Shown here piece after piece: positions 47,286-63,791 of a DNA stretch of 64,000 bases; positions within the stretch are counted from its first letter, which is position 1, and each line of letters starts with the position of its first letter. A model generated the notes under the pieces. The model ran no database searches and was not told the DNA's origin. It saw nothing but the letters and a program-made list of their open reading frames with translations. Location of the stretch: NCBI GenBank assembly GCA_910574995.1, contig CAJTCS010000001.1:620001-684000 (forward strand), read 5' to 3'. This DNA comes from Oscillospiraceae bacterium (GTDB lineage: Bacteria > Bacillota > Clostridia > Oscillospirales > Acutalibacteraceae). Position numbers and translations under genes: made by a program.

Positions 47286-47582
47286 CTACAGCCCCAGCTT
47301 TTCCCAGATACGCTGCAGGAGGCCGGGCTGCTTGGCGGGCGGGGGCTGCCGCCACATTACCAATACCGTGTCCCCGCCGATCAGCTGGATATCCTGCCAG
47401 GGGATAACGGCGTCCGGCTCGCGGCCCAGCAGGCCCAGCAGCCGAAGCCGCCCATACACCACGATGGCGGTAAGGGCGGCGGTGTCCGTGTCCAGCTCAA
47501 TGTCGCTGATAAAGCCCAGCCGGCTGCCGTCCTTCACATTGACGACTTCTTTGTTGCGCAGTTCGCCGATCCTACAGGTCAT
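47286..47582 (-). CDS. YlmC/YmxH family PRC-barrel sporulation protein
   Basis: 98 residues from ATG 47582 (GGAGG 8 bases upstream). TCRIGELRNKEVVNVKDGSRLGFISDIELD is the PRC-barrel motif of YlmC/YmxH proteins, followed by VVYGRLRLLGLLGREPDAVIPW. Normally downstream of sigG in clostridia, as here. Function unclear, sporulation-linked by distribution. Confidence 0.88.
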   Translation of the reverse strand: MTCRIGELRNKEVVNVKDGSRLGFISDIELDTDTAALTAIVVYGRLRLLGLLGREPDAVIPWQDIQLIGGDTVLVMWRQPPPAKQPGLLQRIWEKLGL

Positions 47583-47665
47583 ACGCGCCACCTCCAGGGA
47601 TTCCTACCGTATCCATATGCGCCCCGGCGGCTATGTATGCCCCCGCGGGCGGGGGGCGTGGGCCT

Positions 47666-48157
47666 TTATGCCCGTATCTCCTTCTTGATCTTCCCCAGGG
47701 CGCCCTTCTCCAGCCGGGAAACCTGGGCCTGGGAGATGCCCACCTCGCCGGCCACCTCCATCTGCGTCTTCCCCTCCAGGAACCGCAGGGACAGGATGCG
47801 CTTCTCCCGGTCGCTAAGGCCCCGTATGGCCTGCTTGATGGCGATCTCCTCCAGCCAGTCCTGGTCGTTGCCGTCGCCCACCTGGTCCATGATATAGATG
47901 GCGTCGCCGCCGTCGGAGAACACCGGCTCGTATAGCGAGACGGGCTCTACGATGGCCTCCAGGGCCACCACCACGTCCTCCCGCTTCATGGAAAGGGCCT
48001 GGGAGATCTCCTCGACGGTGGGCTCGCGCCCGCCTTGGGCGGTAAGCTGTTCCTTGCACTGGATGGCCTTGTAGGCTGTGTCCCGCATGCTGCGGCTGAC
48101 CCGTACGGCGTTGTTGTCCCGCAGGAAGCGCCGCACCTCCCCGATGATCATGGGCAT
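47666..48157 (-). pseudogene. sigG: RNA polymerase sporulation sigma-G, 3' part only
   Basis: 163 codons from an ATG inside the gene. The preserved part runs from PMIIGEVRRFLRDNNAVRVSRS through region 3 to region 4 with its helix-turn-helix (KTQMEVAGEVGISQAQVSRLEK). SigG is about 257 residues; the first ~95, coding for core binding and -10 recognition, are absent. Upstream of codon PMIIGE the frame continues only into unrelated sequence that contains the start of the next, oppositely oriented gene. SigG drives late forespore genes, so this fragment alone cannot work as a complete sigma factor. Confidence 0.9.
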
Positions 48158-48193
48158 GACGTTCCCTTGGGGAAAAAGGGAAGGAGGCACAAA

Positions 48194-48772
48194 ATGACCA
48201 GGAAGCAAGCCATTTCCGCAGTCCTCGGCTACTTAGACAAACAGCCCGACTTATCCCCTGACCTCTGCAGGGCAATACTTATTTTGAAGGAAATGCAAAA
48301 TGGGATACCGGGGAAGATTTGGACGGACGAGGCTATCCGGGAGGCCATTGAACGGTTCATGGGGGAACATGGCCGTCCACCAAAAGTCAAGGAGTTGGAT
48401 ACGGTGGAGTATCTGCCTCCCCACCCGGTTGTTGCCCGGCAGTATGGGATGACATCGGGCAGATGGCTGGAGGAAAACTATCCAGGAGCCAAAGGTAGTT
48501 TGTCTGGCCGTTATAAGGGGCTGACGCAGGAAGATTTGAAGGAGATGTTTATAGCAGAGTACCGACGTATCCAGCCAACAAGCGAGGAGGACTTCGACCG
48601 GCGGAGGCAGAAGGGTGTCCCTTGCTGGCATTATGTGGCAAAGGCTCTGGGGGTCAGTAGGTGGAATGAGTTGAGGGAGCTTTGCGGGGTAATGCCAAAG
48701 GAAGGGCGCGGTGGTGAGCGGGTCTTTCTGGTAGATGGGCATGTGCTGGAGGTTGAGCATCACAACGAGTAA
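48194..48772 (+). CDS. Protein with homing-endonuclease-associated (HNH) repeats
   Basis: 192 residues from ATG 48194 after AAGGAGG. Two repeats of the HNH-associated type: IREAIERFMGEHGRPPKVKELD..YGMTSGRWLEENYP (about residues 45-98) and LKEMFIAEYRRIQP..PCWHYVAKALGVSRWNELRELCG (about 115-165). Such repeats are helical DNA-binding modules; no nuclease motif is seen. It is the first gene of the element and starts about 35 bases from the sigG junction. Confidence 0.6.
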   Translation: MTRKQAISAVLGYLDKQPDLSPDLCRAILILKEMQNGIPGKIWTDEAIREAIERFMGEHGRPPKVKELDTVEYLPPHPVVARQYGMTSGRWLEENYPGAKGSLSGRYKGLTQEDLKEMFIAEYRRIQPTSEEDFDRRRQKGVPCWHYVAKALGVSRWNELRELCGVMPKEGRGGERVFLVDGHVLEVEHHNE

Positions 48773-48814
48773 GCTGAATTCTCATTGATTAAAATTTCAT
48801 CACATACAAAGTTG

Positions 48815-48843
48815 CAGCGGCTGGATTTTCTGGCCGCTGTTTA
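48815..48843 (+). terminator. Terminator after the HNH-repeat gene
   Basis: CAGCGGC/GCCGCTG stem, 11-base loop, then TTTATTATTA. Confidence 0.7.
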
Positions 48844-48948
48844 TTATTATGAAGCCTTGGAAGCAAAATATATTTTATAGGATATTAAGATTGTTTGATA
48901 AAATATCAGAAGTGAAAGATAAAAAAGTTAGCACAAGGAGGCGGTACT

Positions 48949-49164
48949 GTGAAAAGAAACGGAACTCTTGTTTATGACAGGGAATCAGACCGAATGGATA
49001 TTTGCTTTGGGCAAGGCGATTATTACGACGGCTTGCATTGTGGGACGCCCTTAGAAGTACAGATAGGAGAAAGCTGGGTACCAACCAGGATAGAGATGGA
49101 TGATGACTGGTATCTGGTTGGCGTCAAAGCAAGTCGATTGGATGGGCTGGTTGTTAGAGTTTGA
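48949..49164 (+). CDS. DUF5348 family protein
   Basis: 71 residues: GTLVYDRESDRMDICFGQGDYYDGLHCGTPLEV read in parts, WVPTRIEMDDDWYLVGV. Matches the small DUF5348 proteins carried by clostridial conjugative elements. Role unknown. Good AAGGAGGCGG upstream. Confidence 0.75.
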   Translation: MKRNGTLVYDRESDRMDICFGQGDYYDGLHCGTPLEVQIGESWVPTRIEMDDDWYLVGVKASRLDGLVVRV

Positions 49165-49176
49165 CAGTGAATCGCT

Positions 49177-49209
49177 GGGCGGCTGCCTTTATGGGGCCGC
49201 CCAATTTTT
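49177..49209 (+). terminator. Terminator after the DUF5348 gene
   Basis: TGGGCGGC/GCCGCCCA stem followed by ATTTTTT. Confidence 0.75.
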
Positions 49210-49242
49210 TATCCTGACATGAAACACAAGGAGGTTCCCGAA

Positions 49243-50326
49243 ATGAAATGCCTGCAAAAGTACCAGTGGGTCAAGCTGCCCCGCAAGTGCCTGCCACGAG
49301 GTAAAGGTATCCTCTCCGCCTGGGCAAAGCTTGCCTCCCGTGCGGCTTTCCGTAAAGGAGTAGCCTCCTACTGCGGCTACAAAAACCCTGTGGAGCCCGG
49401 TATGTGGGCCGGTGGTGTCGTAGGGTTAAAGAGTATCCTGGGTACAAGAAGCCGCTCCAAGGCCCTGGAGACGATGGAAAAGCTCTCCGCACTCGGATAC
49501 CTTACCTACTCCCTGGATAAAGAGACAAAGAAGTTGACCTACCAAATCACTGACTGGGTGGTGAAATGCTCCGGCGCAGCGTGTATGAAAGGAACCGTTT
49601 ACACCACGGATGGCTATGGGTTCCTATGCATGCCTCGAAACATAACCGAACGATTAACACAGCAGCACTACAAATTTGAAGAAGCAGACGCCTGGTTAGA
49701 CCTATGGTGTCATACAGTTTGGGAGGACTCGGACAACGGGTTCTCTTTTTTTTGCGCCTGTTATCCAGTACGGAAAGTATGGCGCTAACCTGACTTTGGA
49801 AACCCTGGGACAGCGCTGGGGCTGGGAAAAGACAAAGGTATGGAGATTTCTGAAGAAGCATGGGGATGCCTTTTCTCTGTATCGTCTGCCCGGCTCGTAT
49901 GGCTGCCTCATTTTTAATAAAGCGTACCCAACCGGTACGGAGGTTTCATTGCCCAACCAGAGGGAAGTTGTGCGCATTTTTAAGGAAATACGCTTTCTTG
50001 GGGCGAATACGCCCAAAGGAAACCAGGGCCAAACACGGTTTGGGAAGCTGGTGGCCTGGTTCAGCAAAAAGTTGAATGAGCTGAAGCACAGCAAACCAGC
50101 GAAAAACAGCCGCGTTGCAGTTTCGGTCCCTATAATACGCGCGTATACTTCTCCTCCTAAGAATTGGAAGAATTGTAAGTTGGACTGCAAGGGTAGTGGT
50201 TATATCCCAGCCCCTGCAAAACTCAGGAGCCACGGGAGCCCTGGGGAAAGTGTGCCTGTTGACCTGACAGAAATCGGAAAGGATTGGTTTGATTATGAAG
50301 AACCGCGAAGAAAATTCAATATATAG
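49243..50326 (+). pseudogene. Replication/DNA-binding-type protein split by a +1 frameshift in a T8 run
   Basis: N-terminal part (49243 to about 49750, from ATG after AAGGAGG) reads KYQWVKLPRKCLPRGKGILSAWAKLAS..; the C-terminal part continues in the next frame with PVIQYGKYGANLTLETLGQRWGWEKTKVWRFLKKHG (in parts), a winged-helix pattern as in element-borne replication initiators. The frames meet at TTCTC followed by eight T (49746-49753); seven T would give one 360-residue protein. Either a disabling mutation, a sequencing error or a slippage site. Confidence 0.65.
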
Positions 50327-50915
50327 CTCAATGGATAAAAAATCACAGGAATTTATCGAAATTCTCGCAAAGCGGGGGATTTTGGGCAATCCTGCCATCA
50401 CAGATGAGAAGGCCCGGGCCGTTAGGCAGCGAAAAGACCGACTCAGTTACCATAACACCTTGCAGCTCCTACAAAATTATCGGACACTGGTGTGGGTAAT
50501 GGACGGCTTCCCGGAGGCGGTGGCCGCAGAGCTGGATATGCCCTTTGAGGACGTAGACGCTCTCCTGGAGCAGATGGATTTGCAGCTGGCCATGGGCAAC
50601 CGGAAGCTGGAAAGCCAGATGGAGGGGGCCAAGAAGACCCGCGTCCTGCTGGACAGGGTCAACGACGCCCTGACTGTCCTCCGGCAGAAGCCGGGGAATG
50701 GCGAGGAGCTATATAAGCTGATCTATCTCACCTACATAGGGCCGGAGACCCTCCGCCATAAAGAACTGCTTTACCGGCTGTCGCTCTCTTCCCGGCAGTA
50801 TTACCGCTATCGTGAGCAGGCCGTTACCATTCTTTCGATTCGATTGTGGTCAGCCCCCGCCGGCGATGTGGATTTTTGGCTGGAAATGCTCACATTTCTG
50901 GAGAGTATTCAATAA
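50295..50915 (+). CDS. Putative ArpU-like/sigma-like regulator
   Basis: 206 residues from ATG 50295, overlapping the frameshifted gene by 32 bases (a TTG at 50289 is also possible). Helical, with KKSQEFIEILAKRGILGNPAIT at the start and a C-terminal segment LRHKELLYRLSLSSRQYYRYREQAV that resembles the DNA-binding end of ArpU/YqaQ-type transcription regulators. Assignment is tentative. Confidence 0.45.
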   Translation: MKNREENSIYSSMDKKSQEFIEILAKRGILGNPAITDEKARAVRQRKDRLSYHNTLQLLQNYRTLVWVMDGFPEAVAAELDMPFEDVDALLEQMDLQLAMGNRKLESQMEGAKKTRVLLDRVNDALTVLRQKPGNGEELYKLIYLTYIGPETLRHKELLYRLSLSSRQYYRYREQAVTILSIRLWSAPAGDVDFWLEMLTFLESIQ

Positions 50916-50945
50916 CATTTTGAGGTCTTTTGGGGTGAAAATCGT

Positions 50946-51413
50946 TTGCCTAAAAATGGAAAAAATGTTGCCGATTCACGTCTATTGACGGGCTGCACCG
51001 ATGACATGACGGCCCTATACTTCTCCTCCCGCAGCGGCGATATGAGCATCCGGGTGGATTCCACGTCCACAACCCGCCAGACCATGGCGGTGGCCCAGCT
51101 CATCGCCCAGTACCGGCAGACCGAGGGCCAGGGCCGTCGGAAGCTTCTTACGCCGGACGAGGTGCTGCGGCTTCCTAACGAGGAACTGCTGTGCGTCATC
51201 CGGGGGTGCAATGTGTTGAAGCTCAAAAAGCTAGACTACACTTTGCACCCCATGGCCAGGGAGTTGAAGAATTGTTCCATTATGGATTACCACCCAGCGC
51301 AGCCGTCTGTGCCCATACCCAAGCCAGAGCGGGAACCCGCTCCCCCAGACCCAGACAAAAAGAAAGCCAAGCCGGGCCTTTACAGCTCGGCAAAGCCACC
51401 TACAGATTTTTAG
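50946..51413 (+). pseudogene. VirD4/TraG coupling protein, C-terminal remnant
   Basis: Residues from TGCTDDMTALYFSSRSGDMS to DYTLHPMARELKN correspond to the last quarter of ICE-type VirD4 ATPases (LLTPDEVLRLPNEELLCVIRG). The Walker motifs and membrane part are missing; upstream sequence is unrelated. Remains of the conjugation machinery. Confidence 0.75.
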
Positions 51414-51426
51414 AAGGAGATAGTGT

Positions 51427-52758
51427 ATGTTTACAGATGATGTTTTATTGCAGGAAACCCAGCCGTCCCAAACCGGGATGGAAATAGAGGGCTCTCCGGT
51501 GGAAGGCGGACTCAGGCACTCCCTGGAAGACCCGCATCCCCAAACCGGCTGGGATTTGTCCGAGGACGGCGAGGAGATGAGGTCTTTCCAACTCGGTTCT
51601 GAGGCAATCCCCCAAACCAGCTCAAAAAGTGGAGATGGATCGGGATTCTTCACGGATCCACGCGATGAGGAGGCTGAAGAACCCCCTCTCCCCCAGACTG
51701 GCTCAAAAATGGCCGAAAATGAGGGAAGCGTGGACCTGAAGGCGCCTGGCGACGCCGTTTTCTCCCAAACCAGGATAAAAAATGACGAGGAGGAGCATGG
51801 ATCTGCAGTGCCTGCGCGCTCCCAGAGCCAGTCTGGGAGGACACCTCCCCAGCGCAGGCGGGTCATGCGCCGCACCCCGGTGCTGGCCATTGGCGACGGC
51901 CCCACCGTGGAAACCGAAGCGGACAAGGCCCGCAGCGACCTGCTCGACCTGGTGGAGTCCCAGAAAACGGGCCGCATCCTCACGGGCACCATCCAGGGCG
52001 TGGAGCGCCCCAAGCCCGAAACGTCCTTGGCAGTCCTGTACCACGGTTCTTTCAAAATTATCATTCCCGCTGAGCAGGCCGTGACTTTGCCCGACGACCG
52101 CCGGGGGCGTTCAGTGGCGGAAATGTACAATTATATGCTCACCAAACGCTTGGGCGCGGAGATAGACTACATCGTGAAGGGCGTGGAGCCGCGGACTGGT
52201 CTGGCAGCCGGGAGCCGTCTGGAGGCCATGGCCGCCAAACGCCGGGAATATTACGGTGCTGACCGGGCGGGAAACCGGCAGATCCACGAGGGAGTCTGCG
52301 CCGAAGCCCGCATCGTGTCGGTCATCCGGGCGGGCATTTTTGTGGAGCTGTTCGGCCTTGAGACGTACATCCCTCTGCGGGAACTGAGCTATCAGCGCTG
52401 GATGGACGCGGGTCTCTACTTCCAGGCAGGCCAGCGGGTGTTGGTAAGGGTACTGGGGGTGGACGCCAGTGACCGGGGATATCCCCGGGTGGTGGCCTCT
52501 GTGAAGCAGGCCGGGGAGAATCCCTACGAAAAGGCGCTCTGGCGGTACTCGGTGGGCAGCTGCTATGTGGGCATGGTAAGCATGGTGGACATCAACGGCG
52601 TTTTCGTGGCGCTGGATGAGGGCGTGGATTGCCTTTGCAGCTACCCCAAGCGCGGCCGGCCGCCCAGAGGGGCCAGGGTCACGGTGCGCATTTTGGGCAT
52701 CAATCGGGAGTCCAACCGTATCTGGGGGGCTATCACCCATATTGCGGCAGCACGATAA
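51427..52758 (+). CDS. S1-domain protein of conjugative elements
   Basis: 443 residues following the VirD4 remnant by 13 bases. Residues 1-130 are acidic and disordered with five spaced copies of a (P/S)QT(G/S) motif; residues 160-290 form a conserved ICE domain (SLAVLYHGSFKIIIPAEQAV); then two S1-like RNA-binding folds, GVCAEARIVSVIRAGIFVELFGLETYIPLREL and VGSCYVGMVSMVDINGVFVALDEGVDCL (read in parts). Similar genes follow virD4 in Tn1549-like elements. Role unknown. Confidence 0.7.
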   Translation: MFTDDVLLQETQPSQTGMEIEGSPVEGGLRHSLEDPHPQTGWDLSEDGEEMRSFQLGSEAIPQTSSKSGDGSGFFTDPRDEEAEEPPLPQTGSKMAENEGSVDLKAPGDAVFSQTRIKNDEEEHGSAVPARSQSQSGRTPPQRRRVMRRTPVLAIGDGPTVETEADKARSDLLDLVESQKTGRILTGTIQGVERPKPETSLAVLYHGSFKIIIPAEQAVTLPDDRRGRSVAEMYNYMLTKRLGAEIDYIVKGVEPRTGLAAGSRLEAMAAKRREYYGADRAGNRQIHEGVCAEARIVSVIRAGIFVELFGLETYIPLRELSYQRWMDAGLYFQAGQRVLVRVLGVDASDRGYPRVVASVKQAGENPYEKALWRYSVGSCYVGMVSMVDINGVFVALDEGVDCLCSYPKRGRPPRGARVTVRILGINRESNRIWGAITHIAAAR

Positions 52759-52789
52759 AAGGCGGAGACAACCGCTCCGCCTTGAACAT

Positions 52790-53116
52790 TTATTCTGAGA
52801 GTTTCTGTAGGGAAACGCATAACTCTGGCAAATCACAGCTAATGATTTCCCAGACAAGATGCAGATTCACACCCTCGTAGTCATGCACGATACGGTTCCG
52901 CAAGCCATACATTTCCTTCCATGGAACTTCCGGATGGGTACTGGAAAAGTCATTATCTATTAGGCGGCACAGTTCCCCTAACTGGCTGAGATTGAAAACA
53001 CAAGCTTCTACCAGCACACTGTCATTGGAAAAACTGCTGTAAGTCTTTCCATCGCAATAGCGTATCACTTTTTTGGCGTAGGCCAGCATCTTTTGGATGA
53101 TAACATTATTTCTCAT
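52790..53116 (-). CDS. hepT: HepT-like HEPN toxin
   Basis: 108 residues, helical HEPN fold with the RNase motif Rx4-6H in GLRNRIVHDYEGVN and the conserved FNLSQLGELCRLI helix. Toxin half of a MntA-HepT pair: cuts or modifies tRNA until its antitoxin AMPylates it. Overlaps the mntA gene by 11 bases. Confidence 0.88.
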   Translation of the reverse strand: MRNNVIIQKMLAYAKKVIRYCDGKTYSSFSNDSVLVEACVFNLSQLGELCRLIDNDFSSTHPEVPWKEMYGLRNRIVHDYEGVNLHLVWEIISCDLPELCVSLQKLSE

Positions 53117-53399
53117 AAATTGTCACCCCAGTAGCCTGTATTTCCTGGTCGAGCCGCGAGCCTTTTTCAATATGGGTCACGTCAAAAATGTCCACTTGCC
53201 GGTTTGTGGCCTGACGTACTGCTTCCATAAAGCCTACAAAACGCAGGCCGTGAAGCCCGCTTTCCACCAGCAGGTCAATGTCGCTTCTTTCTGTCTCTGT
53301 GCCTTTAGCGAAAGAACCAAAGAGCACCGCCCGCATGATCCCATAGTTCTCAAAAACAGGTGAAAGCGTTGCTTGGATTTCTGCTGCGTGTGTAGGCAT
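53106..53399 (-). CDS. mntA: MntA-like minimal nucleotidyltransferase antitoxin
   Basis: 97 residues from ATG 53399 after AAAGGGGG; longer readings are not supported. Nucleotidyltransferase motif LFGSFAKGTETERSDIDLLV (GSx10DxD) is intact. In known pairs it transfers AMP to a tyrosine near the HepT active site and neutralises it. Toxin-antitoxin systems help keep mobile elements. Confidence 0.88.
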   Translation of the reverse strand: MPTHAAEIQATLSPVFENYGIMRAVLFGSFAKGTETERSDIDLLVESGLHGLRFVGFMEAVRQATNRQVDIFDVTHIEKGSRLDQEIQATGVTIYEK

Positions 53400-53574
53400 T
53401 TCGGGTCCCCCTTTCTCTAATCTCAGTATACAACATAGATGCGCAAAAGAAAAGTGGGTATCAGTCAAAAAATTATCAAAAACCTGTTGCAAATTCCGAC
53501 AACGGGCCGTGTAGTGTATCCGAAAGCATGGGAACCTGCACGGCCCGCAAATTTTATCCGGGAGGAAAACCTAT

Positions 53575-53815
53575 ATGGAGCACTTTGAAATCATCGACGC
53601 GGAATTTGGCGGCGAGTACGTCATGGTGGCCCCCGAAGCCGAGGACATCACCCAGGAGTTCAGCCGTTCCCACCAGGCGCTGGACATCGCGGCCCCGGCG
53701 GGTTCTCCCGTGCTGGCGGCAGATGAGGGCACCGTCACCACCGTGCAGGTGTGGGACGGCTCAAAGTCTACCGAGGACAGCCAGAGTTACGGCCACCTGG
53801 TGCAGGTCAAGCACC
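53575..53815 (+). pseudogene. M23 peptidase fragment
   Basis: ATG 53575 after GGGAGGAAAACC. IDAEFGGEYVMVAPEAEDITQEFSRSHQALDIAAP (in parts), GTVTTVQVW and SYGHLVQVKH match the LytM/M23 fold found in conjugative-element cell-wall hydrolases, including one metal histidine (SRSHQALD). After HLVQVKH the frame passes into reverse-transcriptase-like sequence, so the enzyme is cut. Confidence 0.65.
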
Positions 53816-54135
53816 AGCAGAAAAGGCACGAGCCGCGCTTCTGCTCAACTCTGATGGCTACCGGGCACAGCCCCTGCGGAATATCAAGGTACACTCGAAA
53901 TCTACAGGCCGCGACCGCATGATGGGCCTGCCCACCTTCTTTGACCGGGCCATGCAGGTGCTTTATGGCTTCTCCCTCCTCCCCGTACTGGAAGCCTGGG
54001 GGGACAAAAAATCCTTTGCGTTCCGGGAGGGGCGCTCCATGCAGGACTGCCACGCCTATATCCTGCAAGCCCTGCAAGGCCGGGATGCGCCGGAGCTTGT
54101 GGTGCTGGCCGATGTACAGGCGTATTACGCACATG
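53816..54135 (+). pseudogene. Group II intron/retron-type reverse transcriptase fragment
   Basis: In the +3 frame of the M23 gene: RNIKVHSKSTGRDRMMGLPTFFDRAMQVLYGFSLLPVLEAW then FAFREGRSMQDCHAYILQAL and VVLADVQAYYAHV (read in parts), corresponding to reverse transcriptase blocks 1-3 (GIPTFxDR, FGFRxGRS, xxDVxxxF). No start codon and no YADD block remain. It lies between the M23 and relaxase remnants, marking a multi-step rearrangement. Confidence 0.65.
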
Positions 54136-54507
54136 TCCAACAAAGTCAGCGCACATTCCAGCGTCCACAAAATTATCCTTGACGAACGCTCGGACAAGGG
54201 CAAGCTGCGCCGCCTTGGACAACTCAACCGGCAAGGCCACTTCAATTTCCCTGGCAAGCTGGGCATCGCTGGATTTCTCAATTTGCTCCACGCTGTTCCA
54301 GAGGGTGGAGCGGTCTGCGAACGCTGGCGGGGCGTGGGCGGGCAGCATGATTTCTGTATGGACAACACCGCCCTTGCGGGTGTAGTCGTGGGTCATGCCG
54401 TCCCACTCGTTTACCAGCTTTTCGCCGCTCCGATAGGCGGCAGCGGCCACAGCGGACTTGCCCTGGCTCCGCTGGATAATTTGGATGGGACAATGGAAAA
54501 TTGCCGT
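54132..54507 (-). pseudogene. MobA/MobL (MOBQ) relaxase N-terminal fragment
   Basis: AIFHCPIQIIQRSQGKSAVA, AAAYRSGEKLVNEWDGMTHD, YTRKGGVVHTEIMLPAHAP and LSKAAQLALVRAFVKDNFVDAGMCADF are the opening 120 residues of ICE relaxases. The usual first codon ATG is ACG here (54507-54505), 9 bases behind GGAGG. The HxDxxNPHxH active site that should follow CADF is absent because the sequence joins the reverse transcriptase fragment. Nonfunctional as it stands. Confidence 0.85.
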
Positions 54508-54540
54508 AAAAACGCACCTCCTTTCAGTGCTGGATATTGG

Positions 54541-54690
54541 CCCCGCCGGAAAGTGACAGACGCGCAGCGGGTGTCACTTTCTGGCGGGGGTGCGGGGGTT
54601 TGGGGGTGTCAACCCCCATCGCGTCCGAAGGACGCAACAGCCCCCGGCAGGGCGCACGACACCGGCCACGGTGTATAAGTGCGCCATTCG
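54541..54690. other. oriT-like region beside the relaxase remnant
   Basis: An 18-base imperfect inverted repeat (CCCCGCCGGAAAGTGACA at 54541-54558, TGTCACTTTCTGGCGGGG at 54572-54589), two small hairpins (TGGGGG/CCCCCA and GCGTCC/GGACGC), then TAAGTGCGCC at 54676-54685, which resembles the nick region of MOBQ plasmids such as RSF1010 relatives (TAARTGCGCCCT). Located directly upstream of the MobA-type relaxase fragment, as expected for an origin of transfer. Confidence 0.7.
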
Positions 54691-54706
54691 GACTGGGGAT
54701 TACTTC

Positions 54707-54970
54707 TCACCCCCCAGTTTCCGGTGGTTTTTCCGTCACTTCCTGCGCCCCCGGCAAGCGGGACAGGGCAATCAAGAACGCCTTGACTTCCTCACCCTCC
54801 ATATCAACGACAGGGGGAAAGACGGCCTCCAAAATAGCGCCTCGGCCAATCAGCCGGTGCGTCCTGGCCCGGTGTTCCTCGCTGCGCTTTTTGTTCAGCA
54901 AAATCTTCTGGCGGTTCTGCAACTGGCCGATTTTCTTCTCAATCTCCTGTTCCTCCTGGGGCTTGTCCAT
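54707..54970 (-). CDS. DUF3847 family protein
   Basis: 87 residues from ATG 54970, 10 bases after AAGGAGG. Coiled N-terminal half EIEKKIGQLQNRQKILLNKK then RARTHRLIGRGAILEAVF, the DUF3847 pattern seen next to relaxase genes in Firmicute elements. Possibly an accessory of DNA processing. Confidence 0.75.
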   Translation of the reverse strand: MDKPQEEQEIEKKIGQLQNRQKILLNKKRSEEHRARTHRLIGRGAILEAVFPPVVDMEGEEVKAFLIALSRLPGAQEVTEKPPETGG

Positions 54971-54975
54971 GGCTA

Positions 54976-55437
54976 TCAATCCTCCTTTTCCAGCCAGCCA
55001 TTTTGGGCGAAAATCTTCTGCAATTTTTTGAGTGCGCCGGTCACGCTGTCACAGGCGCAGCTTCCGCTGATACCCTCGTCCGCCGCAATCTCCCGGAATT
55101 TTTTCTTCAAGGCATACCTGGCATAGAGCCGCCGCGCCTGGGTGGGGGACAGATGGGTAATGGCCTCCGCCAGACGTTCCAACAGCAGTTCTTCAGCGGC
55201 CTCGTCAATCTCCTGGATAATCAAATCTTCCGGGGACTGCACCAGAAACATAGCGTGGTTTTCAATACCGGGACTGCAATCCATAGAGTAAACATGATAG
55301 TAACTTTTCCTGCCCTCCTGCCGGTTCTCATAGAGCCGACATTCCTCCATGACGGCGGCAACCTCGTCCGGCACTTCAATGAATGTGTCCTTTGTGTAGA
55401 GCGGGTAGTAGTGCTTTCGCAAATTGATAATCGCCAT
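54976..55437 (-). CDS. Sigma-70-region-4-like regulator (1)
   Basis: 153 residues from ATG 55437. N-terminal INLRKHYYPLYTKDTFIEVPDEV then a linker and a C-terminal helix-turn-helix: HLSPTQARRLYARYALKKKFREIAADEGISGSCACDSVTGALKKL (in parts). Similar to the element-encoded sigma-like proteins of clostridial ICEs. It overlaps none but lies 7 bases from gene (2). Likely drives or modulates transfer genes. Confidence 0.7.
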   Translation of the reverse strand: MAIINLRKHYYPLYTKDTFIEVPDEVAAVMEECRLYENRQEGRKSYYHVYSMDCSPGIENHAMFLVQSPEDLIIQEIDEAAEELLLERLAEAITHLSPTQARRLYARYALKKKFREIAADEGISGSCACDSVTGALKKLQKIFAQNGWLEKED

Positions 55438-55444
55438 GCCGCCC

Positions 55445-55897
55445 TCACTTTCCCTGGGGGTGGTCTGCGTAGTAACGGCGGAGATTGCACAGGCCACGGC
55501 GGATGGAGAGGCACACGTTGCTGTTGTGGACGTGCTCCCGGTCTGCGATCTGCTGCTGGGTCAGCCCGCCCAGGTAGTAGGCACAGACACGGCGGGCCTG
55601 GGTGGGGGTGGCGTAGGCCAGGGCCTCCCGCAAGGCAGCGGCCAGCCGGTCACGCTCGGCCTGTTCCTCCGCCAGCATGACAAGCTGCTCCGGGGACAGG
55701 CTGTGTTCCAAGGCATAGTTTTCCGTCCAGTCGAAAGCGTCCAGCGAGTAGAACGCTCGATGATACCGCTTGCGGCGCTCATGGTTCCGCATTTCCCTGA
55801 CGGACTGGCACAGCACGTTAAAGACTTCCTCGCTGACCTCCACCAGCTTGTCCTGCTGGCAATGGGGATAGTGGAGCCGTAGATTGATGATTTTCAT
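55445..55897 (-). CDS. Sigma-70-region-4-like regulator (2)
   Basis: 150 residues: INLRLHYPHCQQDKLVEVSEEVFNVL (same N-terminal fold as gene 1), RRKRYHRAFYSLDAFDW and helix-turn-helix ATPTQARRVCAYYLGGLTQQQIADREHV (in parts). Start behind AGGAGGTCAAA. A 10-bp hairpin GGAGGGACAA/TTGTCCCTCC (55917-55950) lies in its leader. Confidence 0.72.
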   Translation of the reverse strand: MKIINLRLHYPHCQQDKLVEVSEEVFNVLCQSVREMRNHERRKRYHRAFYSLDAFDWTENYALEHSLSPEQLVMLAEEQAERDRLAAALREALAYATPTQARRVCAYYLGGLTQQQIADREHVHNSNVCLSIRRGLCNLRRYYADHPQGK

Positions 55898-55916
55898 TTT
55901 GACCTCCTAAATGACA

Positions 55917-55950
55917 GGAGGGACAAACAGCCGAAACTGCTTGTCCCTCC
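55917..55950 (-). promoter_or_regulatory. Leader hairpin of sigma-like gene (2)
   Basis: GGAGGGACAA and TTGTCCCTCC, 14-base loop, 11 bases upstream of that gene's ribosome-binding site; without T run on either side. Confidence 0.5.
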
Positions 55951-56012
55951 CGGTGATGGAGCATTTTGCCCCTCACCTTATAGCCCACTTAGGGGGTCAA
56001 TCGTTAAGTAGG

Positions 56013-56420
56013 TTATTTGAAGAATTTGAAAAACTTGAAAAACTTTTTGCGGACGGCCTCAATGCTGTAATGAACAGCCGCCTTGGTACAGCCCTCTATC
56101 TCGGCAATCTCCGTATAGCTGAAATCGTACAGCGCGTAGAGCAAGAACCGCTCCCGCTGGGTGTCGGTACAGAGCGCCAGCACCGCCAGAATTTCATCCA
56201 GCGTTTCCCGCTGGCAGACCAGTTCCTCCGGCGTGGCGCAGTAGGGCAAGCGGCCCTCGGTGCTGATTATGTACTCGTCACACTCGCGCCCGTCCCAATA
56301 CCGCTGACGTTCCCGGTAGAGTTTCCGATTGTTCCGCTTGGCCTGTTCCAAATAGCCAGCAACCTCGGCGCTGACCTCAACAGAAACAAACCGCCCATTG
56401 ATTTTGATGGTAATTTCCAT
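56013..56420 (-). CDS. Sigma-70-region-4-like regulator (3)
   Basis: 135 residues: ITIKINGRFVSVEVSAEVAGYLEQAKRNNRK, DGRECDEYI and helix-turn-helix FLLYALYDFSYTEIAEIEGCTKAAVHYSIEAVRKKF, ending in an FKFFKFFK tail. Third member of a tandem set that shares the N-terminal strand layout. Its ribosome-binding site borders a stable hairpin. Confidence 0.72.
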   Translation of the reverse strand: MEITIKINGRFVSVEVSAEVAGYLEQAKRNNRKLYRERQRYWDGRECDEYIISTEGRLPYCATPEELVCQRETLDEILAVLALCTDTQRERFLLYALYDFSYTEIAEIEGCTKAAVHYSIEAVRKKFFKFFKFFK

Positions 56421-56429
56421 CGTCCTTTC

Positions 56430-56460
56430 CTCCGTTCAGATTTTTGAGGTCTGAACGGAG
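56430..56460 (-). promoter_or_regulatory. Hairpin touching the ribosome-binding site of sigma-like gene (3)
   Basis: CTCCGTTCAGA/TCTGAACGGAG, 11-bp perfect stem; on the minus strand the stem's last bases ACGGAG run straight into GAAAGG of the Shine-Dalgarno, so folding would limit access. Confidence 0.55.
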
Positions 56461-56861
56461 GGGGCGGGGAGCGGCAACGGGGAAAGCCGTTCTTTATTTC
56501 AAAGCAAAGCCGACAGGAAACGACAGCGCCCGCACAGCGTTGTACTGTGCGGGCGCATGAAGTGACATAGTTCTTTATATACTTACATATTTCGTGTTTG
56601 CAGCCGGAGTAACCCGGTGGCGGGGCTATACTTTTTTTGACAGATTAAAGGGGGTTAGGATAAAAGGGGACATAGCGATACCTCCCGGATACCGCCGTGT
56701 CCTTAAAAATGGGCGACTTTAACACGCCCTCCGTATCCTCTTTTTCAAAAAGAAACGGCGGTTTGAAATTTCAAAACCGCCGTTTACCCATGGCGCAAAG
56801 ACTTAAATAGCGGTTTCGCGTGGAAACAGAAAGAACCGATAAACCGTGATTTTTCACAAGT
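56461..56861. other. 400-base regulatory-looking gap with three hairpins
   Basis: No gene seen. It holds GCGCCCGCACAG/CTGTGCGGGCGC (56526-56556, 12 bp), GGACA/TGTCC ends around 56669-56702, and AAACGGCGGTTTTG-type palindrome 56753-56785 (AAACGGCGGTTTGAAA with its inverse), which can end transcription on either strand. Confidence 0.55.
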
Positions 56862-57050
56862 TTATCGGCTCTGCGTCTGTGCGTCTGGCTCTCTTATAAT
56901 TGACATATTCAGTTGTTGAACCGTGATTAGAGTTTCTTGTCTGCACTTGGGGCAGTATAGCGGGAAGTTTATCAGGATTGTATCTACGCGCAGCCTAAGC
57001 CTTGTCTTATTGCCACAGACAGGGCATAATAGCCATTTTTCTTTCCCCAT
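56862..57050 (-). CDS. Cysteine-rich KTR-domain protein
   Basis: 62 residues from ATG 57050. Two CxxC knuckles, LLCPVCGNKTRLRLR and YCPKCRQETLI, with the KTR triplet that names the family; a zinc-ribbon miniprotein common on mobile elements. Function unknown. Follows the GntR gene by 4 bases. Confidence 0.8.
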   Translation of the reverse strand: MGKEKWLLCPVCGNKTRLRLRVDTILINFPLYCPKCRQETLITVQQLNMSIIREPDAQTQSR

Positions 57051-57054
57051 AAGG

Positions 57055-57402
57055 TCATCCCCCCAGTGCTTTGAGCTTGATTTTCGCATTGCAGTTTACT
57101 TTCAGCAGGGCGGCTTGGTAACGTGCTGTTTCCTGCTCGATATACTGCTGACGGGCATCGCAAATGATCTGCCTATCATCGGTAACAAAATAGCCCCGAT
57201 ATGTTTTTGAAATTACCCTGCGCTCAATAAGTACGCATAGAGCTTTCCGCATTGTGTCCTGGCTGGTGCTGACTTCCCTCACAAGAGCAGAAGTGGGGGA
57301 AAGTTTACTTCCCATGGGAATAGTCCCATTTATGATTTTGAAAAGCAGCTCATTTGCCAGCTTGTGATATATCCGTTCACTTACAGAAATGTCCCATCCC
57401 AT
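57055..57402 (-). CDS. GntR family regulator (short)
   Basis: 115 residues: winged-helix GntR domain ISVSERIYHKLANELLFKIINGTIPMGSKLSPTSALVREVSTSQDTMRKAL (in parts) with a short charged tail, no effector domain. YtrA-like arrangement. Start weakly supported (GAGGTTATT upstream). May control the adjacent membrane genes. Confidence 0.8.
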   Translation of the reverse strand: MGWDISVSERIYHKLANELLFKIINGTIPMGSKLSPTSALVREVSTSQDTMRKALCVLIERRVISKTYRGYFVTDDRQIICDARQQYIEQETARYQAALLKVNCNAKIKLKALGG

Positions 57403-57425
57403 AATAACCTCCTACGCGGCAATCG

Positions 57426-57518
57426 CTACTTTTTGCGGTTCTTCCACGCCTTGTAGATTGCATTAGCAACGGGCAGCAGAATACAAATGATTACAAACCA
57501 TTGCGGAAAATGCGGCAT
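57426..57518 (-). CDS. Small membrane peptide, 30 aa
   Basis: ATG 57518 follows AGGAGGAAGAACA. MPHFPQWFVIICILLPVANA then IYKAWKNRKK: one TM helix and a basic tail. A larger frame through the same bases upstream has no support. Probably accessory to the neighbouring membrane proteins. Confidence 0.55.
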   Translation of the reverse strand: MPHFPQWFVIICILLPVANAIYKAWKNRKK

Positions 57519-57534
57519 TGTTCTTCCTCCTTTC

Positions 57535-57918
57535 TCATACCAATTTGAAAAATGCAGCCAGTACACAAATAGCGGCGACCAAAAGTGAAGCAATGATCCG
57601 GGAAGCAGAAAAACTATACAGTTTTTCCGGGTGTTCCATATCATAGCGAACAGTAACCGAATCCCCGACCCGTGATGCCATTGATACTTGAATACGATTT
57701 TTTGAACGATAGGTTTTTCCGGCCACAGTGTATGTGAGTTCAGCCCATTTTGAATTGCGGGCTTTCGCCAGCTCCGCATTTGGCATTTTGATAGATGATA
57801 TAGTCCCAATAGTCTGTCCTGTTTTCCCGCGCTTCAACAAAAGCAGCAGCGCATTGGCCAAAGCAAAGCAGACAGCGACAGCGGCGATAGCGTAAAGAAA
57901 AATAGCGTCTTTTCCCAT
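57535..57918 (-). CDS. DUF3592-like membrane protein
   Basis: 127 residues from ATG 57918 (AAAGGA upstream). TM helix at 6-27, an OB-like domain (GTISSIKMPNAEL; WAELTYTVAGKTYRSKN; VGDSVTVRYDMEHPEKLYS) typical of DUF3592, and a C-terminal TM helix. Role unknown; in the same transcript as the ABC transporter. Confidence 0.65.
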   Translation of the reverse strand: MGKDAIFLYAIAAVAVCFALANALLLLLKRGKTGQTIGTISSIKMPNAELAKARNSKWAELTYTVAGKTYRSKNRIQVSMASRVGDSVTVRYDMEHPEKLYSFSASRIIASLLVAAICVLAAFFKLV

Positions 57919-57935
57919 ACTCAATTCCTTTCGCC

Positions 57936-58574
57936 CTATGCTAAATCCACTTTGTCATAAAATTTTACAGACAGGCAGGCGGATATGATAAGAAAGGCAA
58001 TCCCGGCTAAAATCATGCCACCATATACGAAAATCGGCGGGGCCGTAAACAGGGCATCAAAATTCATACCCTCCATTTTGAGTAGTACCGCTGTGAGAAC
58101 GGGGGAGGCCATGATAATGACAACAAATGCAAATTTCGTTTTTTCATAGCCCAGCTTATACTGTGTCGGCAGGTAAAGGCCAACGACAATAGCCGTTATC
58201 AGGAACATCAGCGCCAGCGCATCCAGGCGCAACGCCCCTAACTGCGGAGCCACCATTGTTTCAATTCCGAAAATCAGACAGCAGATCGCATAGATAAGCA
58301 TACAGAAAATGTACTTTGACAAAACAAGGAGCCTCCGGGGGTATGGAGCGGCGCACAGCAGGGCGGACGCTTTGGGGCATTGATACTCTTTGAGCGAAAC
58401 ATACTGCAACAGCATGAATACCGCAAAAATGACGGAAAGGATAAAGCCCATCACCCCGCCGTATTCCGGCGCTCTCCAAAGCATGACCGGCGGAATTGCG
58501 ATAGCCGCCACCAGCATAAGCAGCACATATTTTTTTACAATCAGGAAGTCCTTTTTCACCAGATGGAACAGCAT
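57936..58574 (-). CDS. ABC-2 type transporter permease
   Basis: 212 residues, six TM helices, opening LFHLVKKDFLIVKKYVLLMLVAA, with the ABC-2 family layout and SALLCAAPYPRRLLVLSKY intracellular loop. Start overlaps the ATPase stop by one base (TAATG). With the ATPase it forms an exporter of unknown substrate. Confidence 0.82.
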   Translation of the reverse strand: MLFHLVKKDFLIVKKYVLLMLVAAIAIPPVMLWRAPEYGGVMGFILSVIFAVFMLLQYVSLKEYQCPKASALLCAAPYPRRLLVLSKYIFCMLIYAICCLIFGIETMVAPQLGALRLDALALMFLITAIVVGLYLPTQYKLGYEKTKFAFVVIIMASPVLTAVLLKMEGMNFDALFTAPPIFVYGGMILAGIAFLIISACLSVKFYDKVDLA

Positions 58575-59434
58575 TATTTGTTCCCCCCTTCAATGTTTCC
58601 CAGCATAATATCCTCAATCGCGGGGCGCTCAATCATCGCGTCCGGGAGCATACGCTGTACTTCTGCTACTTGCTTTGTAATGCCCGTAAATCCAAAAGCT
58701 GTCTCATAAATGTTCAAAAACAGCTTACGCAAATCCGGGGTGAGCGCCCGAACATCACCTTTGACAATCCGATATTTGTCCAACAGAGTATCTTTTTCCT
58801 CCTGGAACACGATGCTCCCATTGTCGATCATGATAAGCATATCCGCAATTTTATCAAGGTCAGATATGATATGCGTTGAAAAGAACACCCCTTTGCCGCC
58901 CTTGCTCATGTAGTCTGTCAGGATTTTCAAAAGCTGACTTCTGACCAGAGGGTCAAGGCCGCTGGTGGGTTCGTCCATAATCAGCAGCTCGGCCTCGTGG
59001 GAGAGTGCCAGGGCAAGCGCATATTTCATCCTCATGCCCTTGGAGAGTGTATTGATTTTTTGCTTGGGGTCAAGGGAAAACATATCCATGTACTGCTTGA
59101 AATCGCGCTCCGACCATGCGGTATAGGCGGGAGCAATAATGCTTTTCATTTCGGACAGGGAAAGTTCCTCATAAAAGCAACCATCATCCAGAACAATACC
59201 CAGCCGGTCTTTGATCTGCTTCTCGTTCTGCTCCATATCCAGCCCAAAAAACTGAATTTTGCCAGCCTCCTTGTCGGTGAGCCGCAGGAGCGTCCGCAGG
59301 GTAGTGGTCTTGCCCGCGCCGTTGACACCAATGAAGCCCGTTATGCAGCCCTCCGGCAGAGAAAAAGCAACGTCTTTCAGCGTGAAGCTGCCGTAGCTTT
59401 TCCGCAACCCGGACACTTCCAGAGTATTGTCCAT
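58574..59434 (-). CDS. ABC transporter ATP-binding protein
   Basis: 286 residues. Walker A GVNGAGKTTTLRTLL, signature LSKGMRMKYALALALSHEA, Walker B LLIMDEPTSGLDPL, and H-loop STHII. YtrB/EcsA-like with a 60-residue C-terminal extension. Follows its GntR regulator by one base. Such ytr-type operons respond to cell-wall antibiotics. Confidence 0.92.
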   Translation of the reverse strand: MDNTLEVSGLRKSYGSFTLKDVAFSLPEGCITGFIGVNGAGKTTTLRTLLRLTDKEAGKIQFFGLDMEQNEKQIKDRLGIVLDDGCFYEELSLSEMKSIIAPAYTAWSERDFKQYMDMFSLDPKQKINTLSKGMRMKYALALALSHEAELLIMDEPTSGLDPLVRSQLLKILTDYMSKGGKGVFFSTHIISDLDKIADMLIMIDNGSIVFQEEKDTLLDKYRIVKGDVRALTPDLRKLFLNIYETAFGFTGITKQVAEVQRMLPDAMIERPAIEDIMLGNIEGGNK

Positions 59435-59435
59435 G

Positions 59436-59810
59436 TCAATCCTCCTCGTACAAAATGTTCATCATGTCGTTCAGTTCCTCTTTGCTGATTTTGAGAGTTT
59501 TGGCAATCTGGATCATGTCCAGCATTTTTGCCTCGACCAATCGACGTTTAGAATCCCGCAGCAATTCTAAGTTGCTGGCGGTTACGGAGGTTCCGATACC
59601 CACTTGGCTTGAAACAAAGCCCTCTTTCTCCAATTCCTCATAGACCCGCCGGATTGTCAGCACACTGACTTTCAAATCGTTGGCAAACGCTCGGATAGAT
59701 GGTAGCGGGTCGCCTTCTACCAGTTCTTCTTTGAGGATGGCATCTTTGATCTGGTCTTTGATTTGCTGATAGAGCGGGGTGTCGGAAGTATTGGAAATCA
59801 GTATTTTCAA
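59436..59810 (-). CDS. YtrA-type GntR regulator
   Basis: 124 residues: DTPLYQQIKDQIKDAILKEELVEGDPLPSIRAFANDLKVSVLTIRRVYEELEKEGFVSSQVGIGT (in parts) followed by a short helical tail AKMLDMIQIAKTLKISKEEL. First gene of the ABC operon; expected to repress it by binding the promoter. Confidence 0.88.
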   Translation of the reverse strand: MKILISNTSDTPLYQQIKDQIKDAILKEELVEGDPLPSIRAFANDLKVSVLTIRRVYEELEKEGFVSSQVGIGTSVTASNLELLRDSKRRLVEAKMLDMIQIAKTLKISKEELNDMMNILYEED

Positions 59811-59848
59811 ATTTCGCCCTCCTTCCGATGTGATATATCAACATACAC

Positions 59849-59877
59849 ACTATAACATTTATACACTTAATTGTCAA
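59849..59877 (-). promoter_or_regulatory. Promoter and likely operator of the ytr-like operon
   Basis: TTGACA, 17 bases, TATAGT on the minus strand. The spacer and -10 contain GTGTATAA-ATG-TTATAGTG, an imperfect inverted repeat that fits a GntR operator. Confidence 0.75.
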
Positions 59878-60004
59878 TAGTGCATTGATGCGAGGGAGAA
59901 AAATCTTTTGAAGAATAGGAAAAGAAATGCTACTAAAATATAAAATTGCACTTCGTTCTCATATACGCCCCCGAAATGTAAAATAATATAAAGGTGATGT
60001 GAGA

Positions 60005-60358
60005 ATGTTCCAATATGAAAAACGCCTGGATTGTCATGCCCTGGGCAAAGAAATCAAACGTAGGCGCAAGGCCAAAGGCTGGACACAGGAGCATTTGGCC
60101 CAGCTTGTAGACCTCACTCCCCGCTCCATCATGTATATTGAAAACCGGGGCCAGCACACCAGCCTCAACTCTTTTTACAAACTCGTCACTCTTTTGGATA
60201 TTTCCGTAGATGAATTTTTCTACCCAGACAGGCACAACGGAGAGGACGAACGCCGGAAACACCTTGACCGTATGCTGAACGGCATGGACGAAAAAGAGCT
60301 TATCATCATGGAGGGGGCCGCAGAGGGCATCCGAAAAGCCAGAGAACACCCGGAGTAA
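60005..60358 (+). CDS. XRE family transcriptional regulator
   Basis: 117 residues from ATG 60005 (AAGGTGAT upstream; a GTG at 59999 is possible). Helix-turn-helix LGKEIKRRRKAKGWTQEHLAQLVDLTPRSIMYIENRG and LVTLLDISVDEFFYP, then a helical tail. Divergent from the ytr-like operon. Typical element-borne repressor. Confidence 0.88.
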   Translation: MFQYEKRLDCHALGKEIKRRRKAKGWTQEHLAQLVDLTPRSIMYIENRGQHTSLNSFYKLVTLLDISVDEFFYPDRHNGEDERRKHLDRMLNGMDEKELIIMEGAAEGIRKAREHPE

Positions 60359-60403
60359 ACGGCAGCACGAGGCCAGTTGTGGTTAGCCTGTGCTGCCGTT
60401 TTC
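60357..60403. terminator. Convergent terminator
   Basis: AAACGGCAGCAC/GTGCTGCCGTTTT stem between convergent genes. Confidence 0.75.
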
Positions 60404-60409
60404 ATTATG

Positions 60410-60712
60410 TCATTTGAGTTTATCAAGATACGCCTGCCGCTGGACGCTCACCCTTGCCAAATCGTCATAAGTAAGCTCACGGCGGGCCAATGTAGCTTTG
60501 TATTCCAGCCAACCGGTCAGGTCATAAATCAGAGCGTCCGCCATGCTCTCCGGGGTCGGACACAACTGTGTGCCTGTCCACTCCATGCAGCGGTCATCCC
60601 ACTCTAAAATCGTATAGCCGTGGGAGGTCATAACGATTTCATATGCGCCGCTTTCTTCCAAAAAATCTTGAAACACAGCCATTACTTTCTCAAAGGTCAA
60701 ATCAGTTTTCAT
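60410..60712 (-). CDS. Hypothetical protein of conjugative elements
   Basis: 100 residues, FEKVMAVFQDFLEESGAYEIVMTSHGYTIL then LCPTPESMADALIYDLTGWLEYKATLAR. Mixed alpha/beta, no known motif. Lies 15 bases after the recombinase gene on the same strand. Family unknown to me, though such proteins commonly trail element recombinases. Confidence 0.55.
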   Translation of the reverse strand: MKTDLTFEKVMAVFQDFLEESGAYEIVMTSHGYTILEWDDRCMEWTGTQLCPTPESMADALIYDLTGWLEYKATLARRELTYDDLARVSVQRQAYLDKLK

Positions 60713-60727
60713 GTTCTTGCCCCTCCC

Positions 60728-62607: not shown

Positions 62608-62630
62608 AGCACAGACCTCCTTGAATGAAA

Positions 62631-62697
62631 ATATGCTCTAAGCTGTCCTTGCCTATCACCGAAAAATCAGTGAATTAACAAGTCGCTTAGAGCATAT
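62631..62697. repeat. Perfect 13-bp inverted repeat upstream of the recombinase
   Basis: ATATGCTCTAAGC (62631-62643) and GCTTAGAGCATAT (62685-62697), 41 bases apart and 24 bases from the recombinase start. Could be the element end (att site dyad) or an operator of the recombinase gene. No T run follows. Confidence 0.6.
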
Positions 62698-63759: not shown

Positions 63760-63791
63760 ATAGGTAAATGACTACCTTTAGCTTATCTGCT

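What the first reader, a model, noticed from the sequence alone, without database searches (positions are those of the whole stretch)
47666..48200. sigG is interrupted at the PMIIGE codons by a mobile region (possible skin-like element)
Seen: sigma-G sequence from PMIIGEVRRFLRDN to its end is intact, but the first ~95 residues are missing and unrelated, lower-GC DNA starts within a few bases, carrying recombination and conjugation genes. Known: in bacilli and Clostridioides difficile the skin element interrupts sigK and is excised by a large serine recombinase during sporulation. Inference: this may be an analogous element in sigG, which I do not know as an established case, or a fixed knock-out making the strain asporogenous.
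Basis: partly seen in the sequence, partly recalled or inferred. Interest (0 to 1): 0.9.

Follow-up and report, generated by a model that had tools for sequence, protein, structure and literature searches.

The report
Spore gene sigG split by recombinase
In many gut bacteria the master gene of the future spore, sigG, lies in two pieces in the chromosome, and a DNA-rearranging enzyme whose gene seems to be switched on in the early spore compartment appears able to rejoin the pieces, by cutting DNA out or by flipping it over; the rejoining itself has not yet been seen.

Summary
The window's sigG breaks at the Pro codon of GVPMIIGE; its missing 5' part lies on another contig beside a large serine recombinase (LSR). 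A scan with that LSR found a clade tied to split sigG: 40 of 51 loci (at least 45% identity) have a sigG half within 10 kb, cut at the same codon, against 0 of 29 more distant loci. Of 38 carrier genomes searched whole, 33 gave both halves, 5 only the C half, none an intact sigG. Three viral contigs carry intact, symmetrical attP sites. Where the split is inherited (Flavonifractor) both halves are under strong purifying selection. A sigma-F-type promoter precedes 27 of 45 recombinase operons (14 of 542 neighbouring genes), and the same motif precedes sigG (40 of 58). A small ORF upstream of the LSR is a candidate directionality factor. Same-contig halves lie in excision orientation (11 cases, 2.5-60 kb), inverted (3; two span the dcw cell-division genes), or in an order that fits neither (1). 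Best reading: sigma-F turns on a recombinase that rejoins sigG in the forespore, which is the germ line. Recombination was not observed, and the geometry in the window's own genome is unresolved.

The parts
47666..48157 (-). 3' part of sigG (163 aa from MPMIIGE, with stop codon)
   Evidence: domain and SigG model matches of the joined protein
48153..48154 (-). CC of the Pro codon, inferred crossover dinucleotide
   Evidence: position checked; centre of the arm symmetry in the junctions and of the intact viral sites
48155..48177 (-). P-arm half-site TTTTTCCCCAAGGGAACGTCATG flanking the crossover
   Evidence: same arm type in other loci
48194..48772 (+). companion gene of the MTRKQA type (192 aa), at the element end opposite to the LSR
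   Evidence: similar genes beside a junction in G023 and L144 and next to the LSR and attP in viral contigs L270 and L271; no Pfam family
48155..64000 (.). element-side DNA, continuing beyond the window to the end of contig C1 (C1:756682)
   Evidence: G+C shift; gene content by eye
47286..47591 (-). host-side neighbour downstream of sigG: PRC-barrel protein (YlmC/YmxH-like by eye)
   Evidence: PRC domain; a similar gene lies near intact sigG in G008

Best explanation
sigG is held in two pieces by a site-specific recombination system dedicated to this gene. A large serine recombinase recombines attP with attB, the conserved GVP-MIIGE stretch of sigG, crossing over at the CC of the Pro codon; this splits the gene and is the vegetative state. 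During sporulation sigma-F, the early forespore sigma factor that also drives sigG, transcribes an operon of a 40-65 aa protein (candidate recombination directionality factor) and the LSR; together they recombine attL with attR and rejoin sigG in frame in the forespore, by excision where the halves are in direct orientation and by inversion where they are inverted. After germination the LSR alone would split the gene again. Shown from sequence: the split, the att architecture, the LSR clade and its target, promoter-like sites, purifying selection, and both geometries. Inferred: that recombination happens, its compartment, the role of the small protein, and re-splitting.
For: 5' half and LSR found. 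Same cut in 40 of 51 LSR loci of the clade against 0 of 29 more distant ones; 38 carrier genomes searched whole, none with an intact sigG. LSR clade with 100/99 support. Intact symmetrical attP in three viral contigs. dN/dS of the halves 0-0.066 in six Flavonifractor-type genomes, with LSR dS in a similar range; in the window's genus split genes lie within the range of intact ones. Sigma-F-type promoter before the operon in 27 of 45 loci against 14 of 542 control genes, spacing peak 14-15 nt, and before sigG in 40 of 58. Inverted halves with the dcw cluster between them in G424 and G421. SpoIVB above its cut-off in 34 of 41 split genomes.
Against: No joined sigG or excised circle was seen in any carrier. 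In G432 the order of the halves fits neither excision nor inversion. In-frame stops in spoIVB of G432 and G441, partial or no good match in G430, G435, G436, G442; an in-frame stop in the C half of G420. 18 of 45 operons lack the relaxed motif, and ten of 55 loci were dropped because no small-ORF start was assigned; at 60% LSR identity only 8 of 13 clusters contain the motif. In viral contig L272 neither the small ORF nor the motif was found. Excision in the germ line would lose the element unless it re-integrates, which is not shown.
Confidence: 0.75

Rival explanations
1. Plain mobile elements (phages, ICE-like elements) use sigG as an integration site; insertion abolishes sporulation and nothing is rejoined as part of development.
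For: Viral contigs carry the LSR and attP; the 60-kb insert of G023 has conjugation-like genes by eye; several Agathobaculum-group genomes have damaged or missing spoIVB.
Against: Purifying selection on both halves where the split is inherited; sigma-F-type promoter before the operon; inserts of 2.5 kb without mobility genes; inverted arrangements spanning cell-division genes with the LSR elsewhere.
Confidence: 0.14
2. Rejoining takes place before asymmetric division or in the mother cell, not in the forespore.
For: SPbeta excision was found to be mother-cell specific (PMC4191935 passages), and the other known targets are described as mother-cell genes, which explains how those elements persist.
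Against: The promoter-like site is of the sigma-F type; sigma-E and sigma-K regexes gave no hits. Sigma-G acts in the forespore (PMC7438776 passages).
Confidence: 0.06
3. The two parts are expressed as two polypeptides that work together as a two-piece sigma factor, without DNA rejoining.
For: Both parts are open and conserved; the P arm often supplies an ATG just before the C part.
Against: The cut falls inside the sigma region 2 match (residues 41-109); no reason for an LSR, symmetrical att arms and exact in-frame joining; no clear ribosome-binding site before the C part in the window (by eye).
Confidence: 0.03
4. The system works elsewhere, but in the window's own strain it is decayed or can no longer be resolved because an essential gene lies on the element side.
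For: The only pyrG is on the element side of the 5' junction and the halves are on different contigs.
Against: Both halves, the LSR, the small ORF and a relaxed sigma-F-type site are present in G000; dN/dS of its halves is within the range of intact congeners; SpoIVB is above its cut-off. An inverted arrangement would lose nothing.
Confidence: 0.25

Closest known systems
skin element in sigK of Clostridioides difficile (LSR CD1231, RDF CD1234)
   Same: Sporulation sigma-factor gene split by LSR att sites; a small protein under a sporulation sigma factor is needed for excision, the LSR alone integrates, or inverts if sites are opposed (PMC5025042 passages)
   Different: Target is the mother-cell sigma-K, RDF under sigma-E/SpoIIID; here the target is the forespore sigma-G and the promoter-like site is of the sigma-F type
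SPbeta prophage in spsM of Bacillus subtilis
   Same: Phage-derived LSR system that restores a sporulation gene
   Different: Excision is mother-cell specific, so the spore keeps the prophage (PMC4191935 passages); here the germ-line compartment is implicated
gin in gerE, vfbin in spoVFB, vrin in spoVR, yin in yabG
   Same: Gene-intervening elements with serine recombinases in sporulation genes (PMC5595907, PMC4191935, PMC10747680 passages)
   Different: Other targets, described as mother-cell genes; no inversion of essential chromosomal segments described in the passages seen
XisF, fdxN element excision recombinase (NCBIfam NF041201)
   Same: Serine recombinase for developmental gene rejoining; similarity over most of the G000 LSR
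   Different: 145.7 bits against a cut-off of 375: not a member

Membership tests
Sporulation gene-intervening element (skin-like) | A sporulation gene is interrupted at one precise site and is in frame when rejoined | tested here: met
Sporulation gene-intervening element (skin-like) | A site-specific recombinase with att half-sites at both junctions | tested here: met
   in some carriers the LSR is encoded elsewhere
Sporulation gene-intervening element (skin-like) | Dispensable DNA between the halves, in excision orientation | tested here: inconclusive
   Orientation met in 11 same-contig cases; 3 inverted and 1 fitting neither; unresolved in the window's genome, with pyrG on the element side
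Sporulation gene-intervening element (skin-like) | Excision during sporulation | not testable with these tools
   No reads or cultures
Sporulation gene-intervening element (skin-like) | Target gene acts in the mother cell (true of the cases in the papers seen) | tested here: not met
   The gene is sigG; sigma-G is a forespore factor (PMC7438776 passages)
Large serine recombinase | Resolvase, Recombinase and zinc-ribbon domains | tested here: met
Recombination directionality factor (small ORF) | Changes LSR direction from integration to excision | not testable with these tools
   Only position, size, conservation and dN/dS below 1 are shown; no known family
XisF (NCBIfam NF041201) | Score above the NCBIfam cut-off | tested here: not met
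   145.7 against 375 bits

The most novel reading that the evidence does not exclude
A widespread germ-line gene rearrangement in bacteria: in each sporulation the forespore chromosome itself is rearranged under sigma-F control to assemble sigG, in some lineages by reversible inversion of a 30-42 kb segment carrying the dcw cell-division cluster with the recombinase encoded elsewhere, and the gene is split again after germination.
Probability: 0.5. Interest if true: 0.96.

Novelty: new variant of a known kind. Interest (0 to 1): 0.92.

Why it matters
The programmed rearrangements of spore formers described in the papers seen lie in genes of the mother cell, which dies, so the germ line is spared. 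Here the split gene is needed in the forespore, which becomes the next generation. If confirmed, this is a reversible DNA switch in the germ line of common gut bacteria; surveys that expect a full-length sigG could call such species unable to sporulate; and it offers a set of recombinase and candidate directionality-factor pairs for one conserved site.

Tried and rejected
Misassembly at the junction: rejected, since the same break recurs in many assemblies and in one-contig G023. A second intact sigG: none in G000 and none in 38 carrier genomes (rows of 38-46% identity that span the gene were taken as sigF, an inference). A dispensable excisable element as the general explanation: rejected for G424 and G421, where by eye the dcw genes lie between inverted halves. 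Sigma-G, -E, -K, -A and -H regexes before the operon: 0-5 of 45 hits, against 0.03-2.1 expected; the relaxed sigma-A form gave 5 against 2.1. All sigma regexes are recalled; the promoter region of sigG served as internal control. A known family for the small ORF: none in Pfam, NCBIfam or the PDB. Structure of the small ORF: the job had not finished at any look. Order of contigs C1 and C6 in G000: unresolved. To read with care: the 45 operons are related (70% LSR identity: 23 clusters, 18 with the relaxed motif; 60%: 13 clusters, 8 with it). Ten of 55 loci were dropped before that count. Of 49 small-ORF profile matches in 55 loci, 36 have E below 1e-5 and 20 of those were seeds. One search printed only part of its 347 matches, so no frequency is given from it. 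Sigma-A-like sites between small ORF and LSR were listed without a control. dN/dS pairs with the C half of G420 are unusable: its in-frame stop upset the codon alignment. Many dS values in the Agathobaculum group are near saturation.

Full report
WHAT IS IN THE WINDOW. The window is G000:C1:620001-684000 of a 3.45-Mb genome in 54 contigs. At 47666-48157 on the minus strand lies the 3' part of sigG, 163 residues from MPMIIGE, without a stop. It is the only copy: the other four matches in the genome are 32-44% identical. G+C falls at this point.

THE MISSING HALF. A SigG N-terminal query found the 5' part on contig C6 (30671-30961 minus, 70% identity to the typed query); with its own sequence it is 30677-30964, the only match at E up to 1e-20. 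It ends FSTYGVPM and then runs into unrelated sequence. Directly beside it, convergent, is a 480-residue large serine recombinase, LSR, with Resolvase, Recombinase and zinc-ribbon domains. Joining the halves at the Pro codon restores GVPMIIGE in frame; as a protein query the joined form passes one NCBIfam SigG cut-off (NF006071) and lies below that of a second SigG model (TIGR02850, 406.6 against 457).

THE SAME BREAK ELSEWHERE. In the window's genus 25 genomes were searched; both halves were found in 21, of which 3 are split (G000, G004, G023) and 18 intact. G023 is one contig, with the halves 60.0 kb apart on one strand; G004 has 14.9 kb between them. In other families of the order G025 and G411 are split, and all five genomes of one genus (g62) listed with a match; one of these five, G079, matches Flavonifractor sp. 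An112. The recombinases of these ten genomes are homologous (49-93% to that of G109). One search covered 394 genomes, 347 with a match, but printed only the best rows, so no frequency follows from it.

THE RECOMBINASE CLADE IS TIED TO sigG. Of the 51 with at least 45% identity, 40 have a sigG half within the fetched flank of up to 10 kb, usually next to the LSR, always cut at residues 94/95; of the other 29 none has one. One of the 11 without a half (L199) ends about 0.2 kb after the match. For 38 carriers the whole genome was searched: both halves in 33, only the C half in 5 (G416, G422, G429, G440, G451), an intact sigG in none. Ten of the 38 have the LSR away from sigG; of these 8 gave both halves (G418 only part of the C half) and 2 only the C half (G416, G422). 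In a sample of 391 genomes of the class, 10 including G000 have an LSR of this clade by bit score. None of the nine others has an intact sigG frame: five gave both halves, G456 and G620 only the C half, and in G805 and G722 the matches are weak (38-46%); two genomes with distant LSRs (G510, G608) have an intact sigG. By identical places at least four of the nine are genomes already counted. In the tree the clade of 61 rows has support 100/99 and holds the 46 LSRs with a sigG half in the flank, the 10 with sigG split elsewhere, 4 on viral contigs and one long-branch row (L180) whose genome was not checked.

ATT SITES. In 46 junctions from 40 loci and 18 from fetched regions, at least two of them repeats, homology to sigG ends at the Pro codon. 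That a Pro codon begins with CC is trivial; the information is that the flanking arms look symmetrical about this CC (roughly TTTTC...TCATG-CC-nATGAA...GAAA; by eye). Three viral contigs of 114-148 kb carry the LSR followed by an intact site of this form: a perfect palindrome around GG in L271, less perfect ones around CC in L270 and GG in L272. In L270 and L271 the next gene is of the MTRK type that lies at the other junction in the window (48194-48772). Relative to its ends the G023 element is inserted the other way round than that of G000.

GEOMETRIES. Same-contig halves in direct (excision) orientation: G004, G023, G079, G109, G163, G237, L129, L139, L144, L163 and L166, 11 cases with 2.5 to 60 kb between the halves. 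L144 and L166 have about 2.5 kb: L144 an MTRK gene, tRNA-like sequences by eye, the small ORF and the LSR; L166 a shell-protein-like gene, the small ORF and the LSR. The one Flavonifractor-type insert read in full holds ThiF-like, aldehyde ferredoxin oxidoreductase, ferredoxin and alcohol dehydrogenase genes, by eye. Inverted: G318 (3.7 kb), G424 (30 kb) and G421 (about 41.7 kb). In G424, a Cuneatibacter isolate, and in G421 the segment holds, by eye, the dcw cluster up to ftsZ, so deletion would be lethal, while recombination of inverted sites would turn the segment and restore sigG. In G419, G420, G421 and G424 a class III FBPase-like gene lies on the element side of the N half; in G419 and G420 the halves are on different contigs. 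One case fits neither: in Agathobaculum massiliense (G432) the order of the halves would put sigG on a 112-kb circle. In G000 the halves lie on different contigs and its only pyrG is on the element side of the 5' junction, so either the insert holds an essential gene or the geometry is an inversion.

IS sigG STILL USED? In six Flavonifractor-type genomes the N half has pairwise dN/dS 0-0.052 and the C half 0-0.066, at dS 0.09-0.9; the LSR has 0.06-0.28 at dS 0.21-0.63, as expected if the split was inherited together with the LSR. Six Agathobaculum-group C halves: 0.005-0.049 in the 14 of 15 pairs that could be computed, many with dS near saturation. In the window's genus, medians to intact congeners lie inside the intact range (C: split 0.095-0.127, intact 0.037-0.199; N: split 0.063-0.115, intact 0.036-0.118); pairs of split genes among themselves reach 0.257 for the N half. 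Against: stops inside the match in G432 and G441, partial matches in G430 and G435, no good match in G436 and G442, and a stop in the C half of G420.

A SMALL PROTEIN AND A SIGMA-F-TYPE PROMOTER. Upstream of the LSR, on the same strand, most loci have a 40-65 residue ORF with a motif like RYING. A profile matched 49 of 55 loci, 36 with E below 1e-5, 20 of them seeds. dN/dS is 0.055-0.247 in nine of ten pairs tried; the G000-G023 pair could not be computed. It has no family in Pfam, NCBIfam or the PDB. A known factor of this kind, CD1234, has 53 residues (PMC10747680 passages). Of 45 upstream regions (ten of 55 loci dropped for want of an assigned start) 27 contain G.[AT]T[AG]-N14-17-GnnnAnAnT and 10 the strict form, against 2.7 and 0.3 in shuffles, and against 14 and 2 of 542 upstream regions of other genes in the same loci (Fisher 1e-24 and 1.5e-10). 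Related loci inflate these values: 18 of 23 clusters at 70% LSR identity contain the relaxed motif, 8 of 13 at 60%. Spacing is 15 nt in 18 and 14 nt in 8 of the 27; permuted motifs gave 0-3 of 45. The same motif with the same spacing stands before sigG itself in 40 of 58 cases. The sigma-F consensus is recalled; C. difficile sigG has a promoter just upstream recognised by forespore sigma factors (PMC7438776 passages). In viral contig L270 a strict site stands about 20 nt before the small ORF; in L272 neither was found. Some loci with a gap between ORF and LSR have a sigma-A-like site there (no control run), which would give LSR alone in growing cells.

MODEL. LSR alone splits sigG by attP x attB; sigma-F adds the small protein, attL x attR rejoins sigG in the forespore, sigma-G follows. 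This is the logic shown for C. difficile skin, where CD1231 alone integrates or inverts and CD1234, under sigma-E and SpoIIID, is needed for excision (PMC5025042 passages), moved to the other compartment. The consequence is unusual: the rearranged chromosome is inherited. Inversion loses nothing; after excision the element must re-integrate or be lost, and its retention in Flavonifractor suggests re-integration. None of these reactions was observed.

WHAT IS KNOWN. Papers seen as passages describe elements in sigK, spsM, spoVFB, spoVR, gerE and yabG and state mother-cell-specific excision for SPbeta. Searches for a sigG case showed none in their listings; the library holds open-licence papers only, and apart from the six papers looked into as passages only listings were seen.

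Noticed in passing
window 60728-62607: A second serine recombinase seems broken into two reading frames (61669-62607 and 60728-61633, minus); by eye it resembles conjugative-transposon recombinases, and the first piece has Resolvase and Recombinase domains.
   Followed up: no
G432:C2 296939 and 408910: In Agathobaculum massiliense the sigG halves are on one strand in swapped order, 112 kb apart, which fits neither excision nor inversion; its spoIVB match contains four stops.
   Followed up: partly
L119 8946-13520 (G109): The 6.4-kb insert between the sigG halves holds metabolic genes (ThiF-like, aldehyde ferredoxin oxidoreductase, ferredoxin, alcohol dehydrogenase, by eye) instead of mobility genes; spacing is the same in four related genomes.
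   Followed up: partly
G023:C1 3312247-3323346: The G023 insert contains several copies of the MTRKQA-type companion gene found next to the junction in the window.
   Followed up: no
L270 4745-4980: A 115-kb viral contig carries a strict sigma-F-type site before the small ORF, that is, a host sporulation promoter in a phage.
   Followed up: partly
L268 4974-7884: A viral contig with two serine recombinase genes in tandem.
   Followed up: no
L077 8435-16270 (G004): The 14.9-kb insert of G004 contains two long repeat-rich, surface-like reading frames of 682 and 1885 residues.
   Followed up: no
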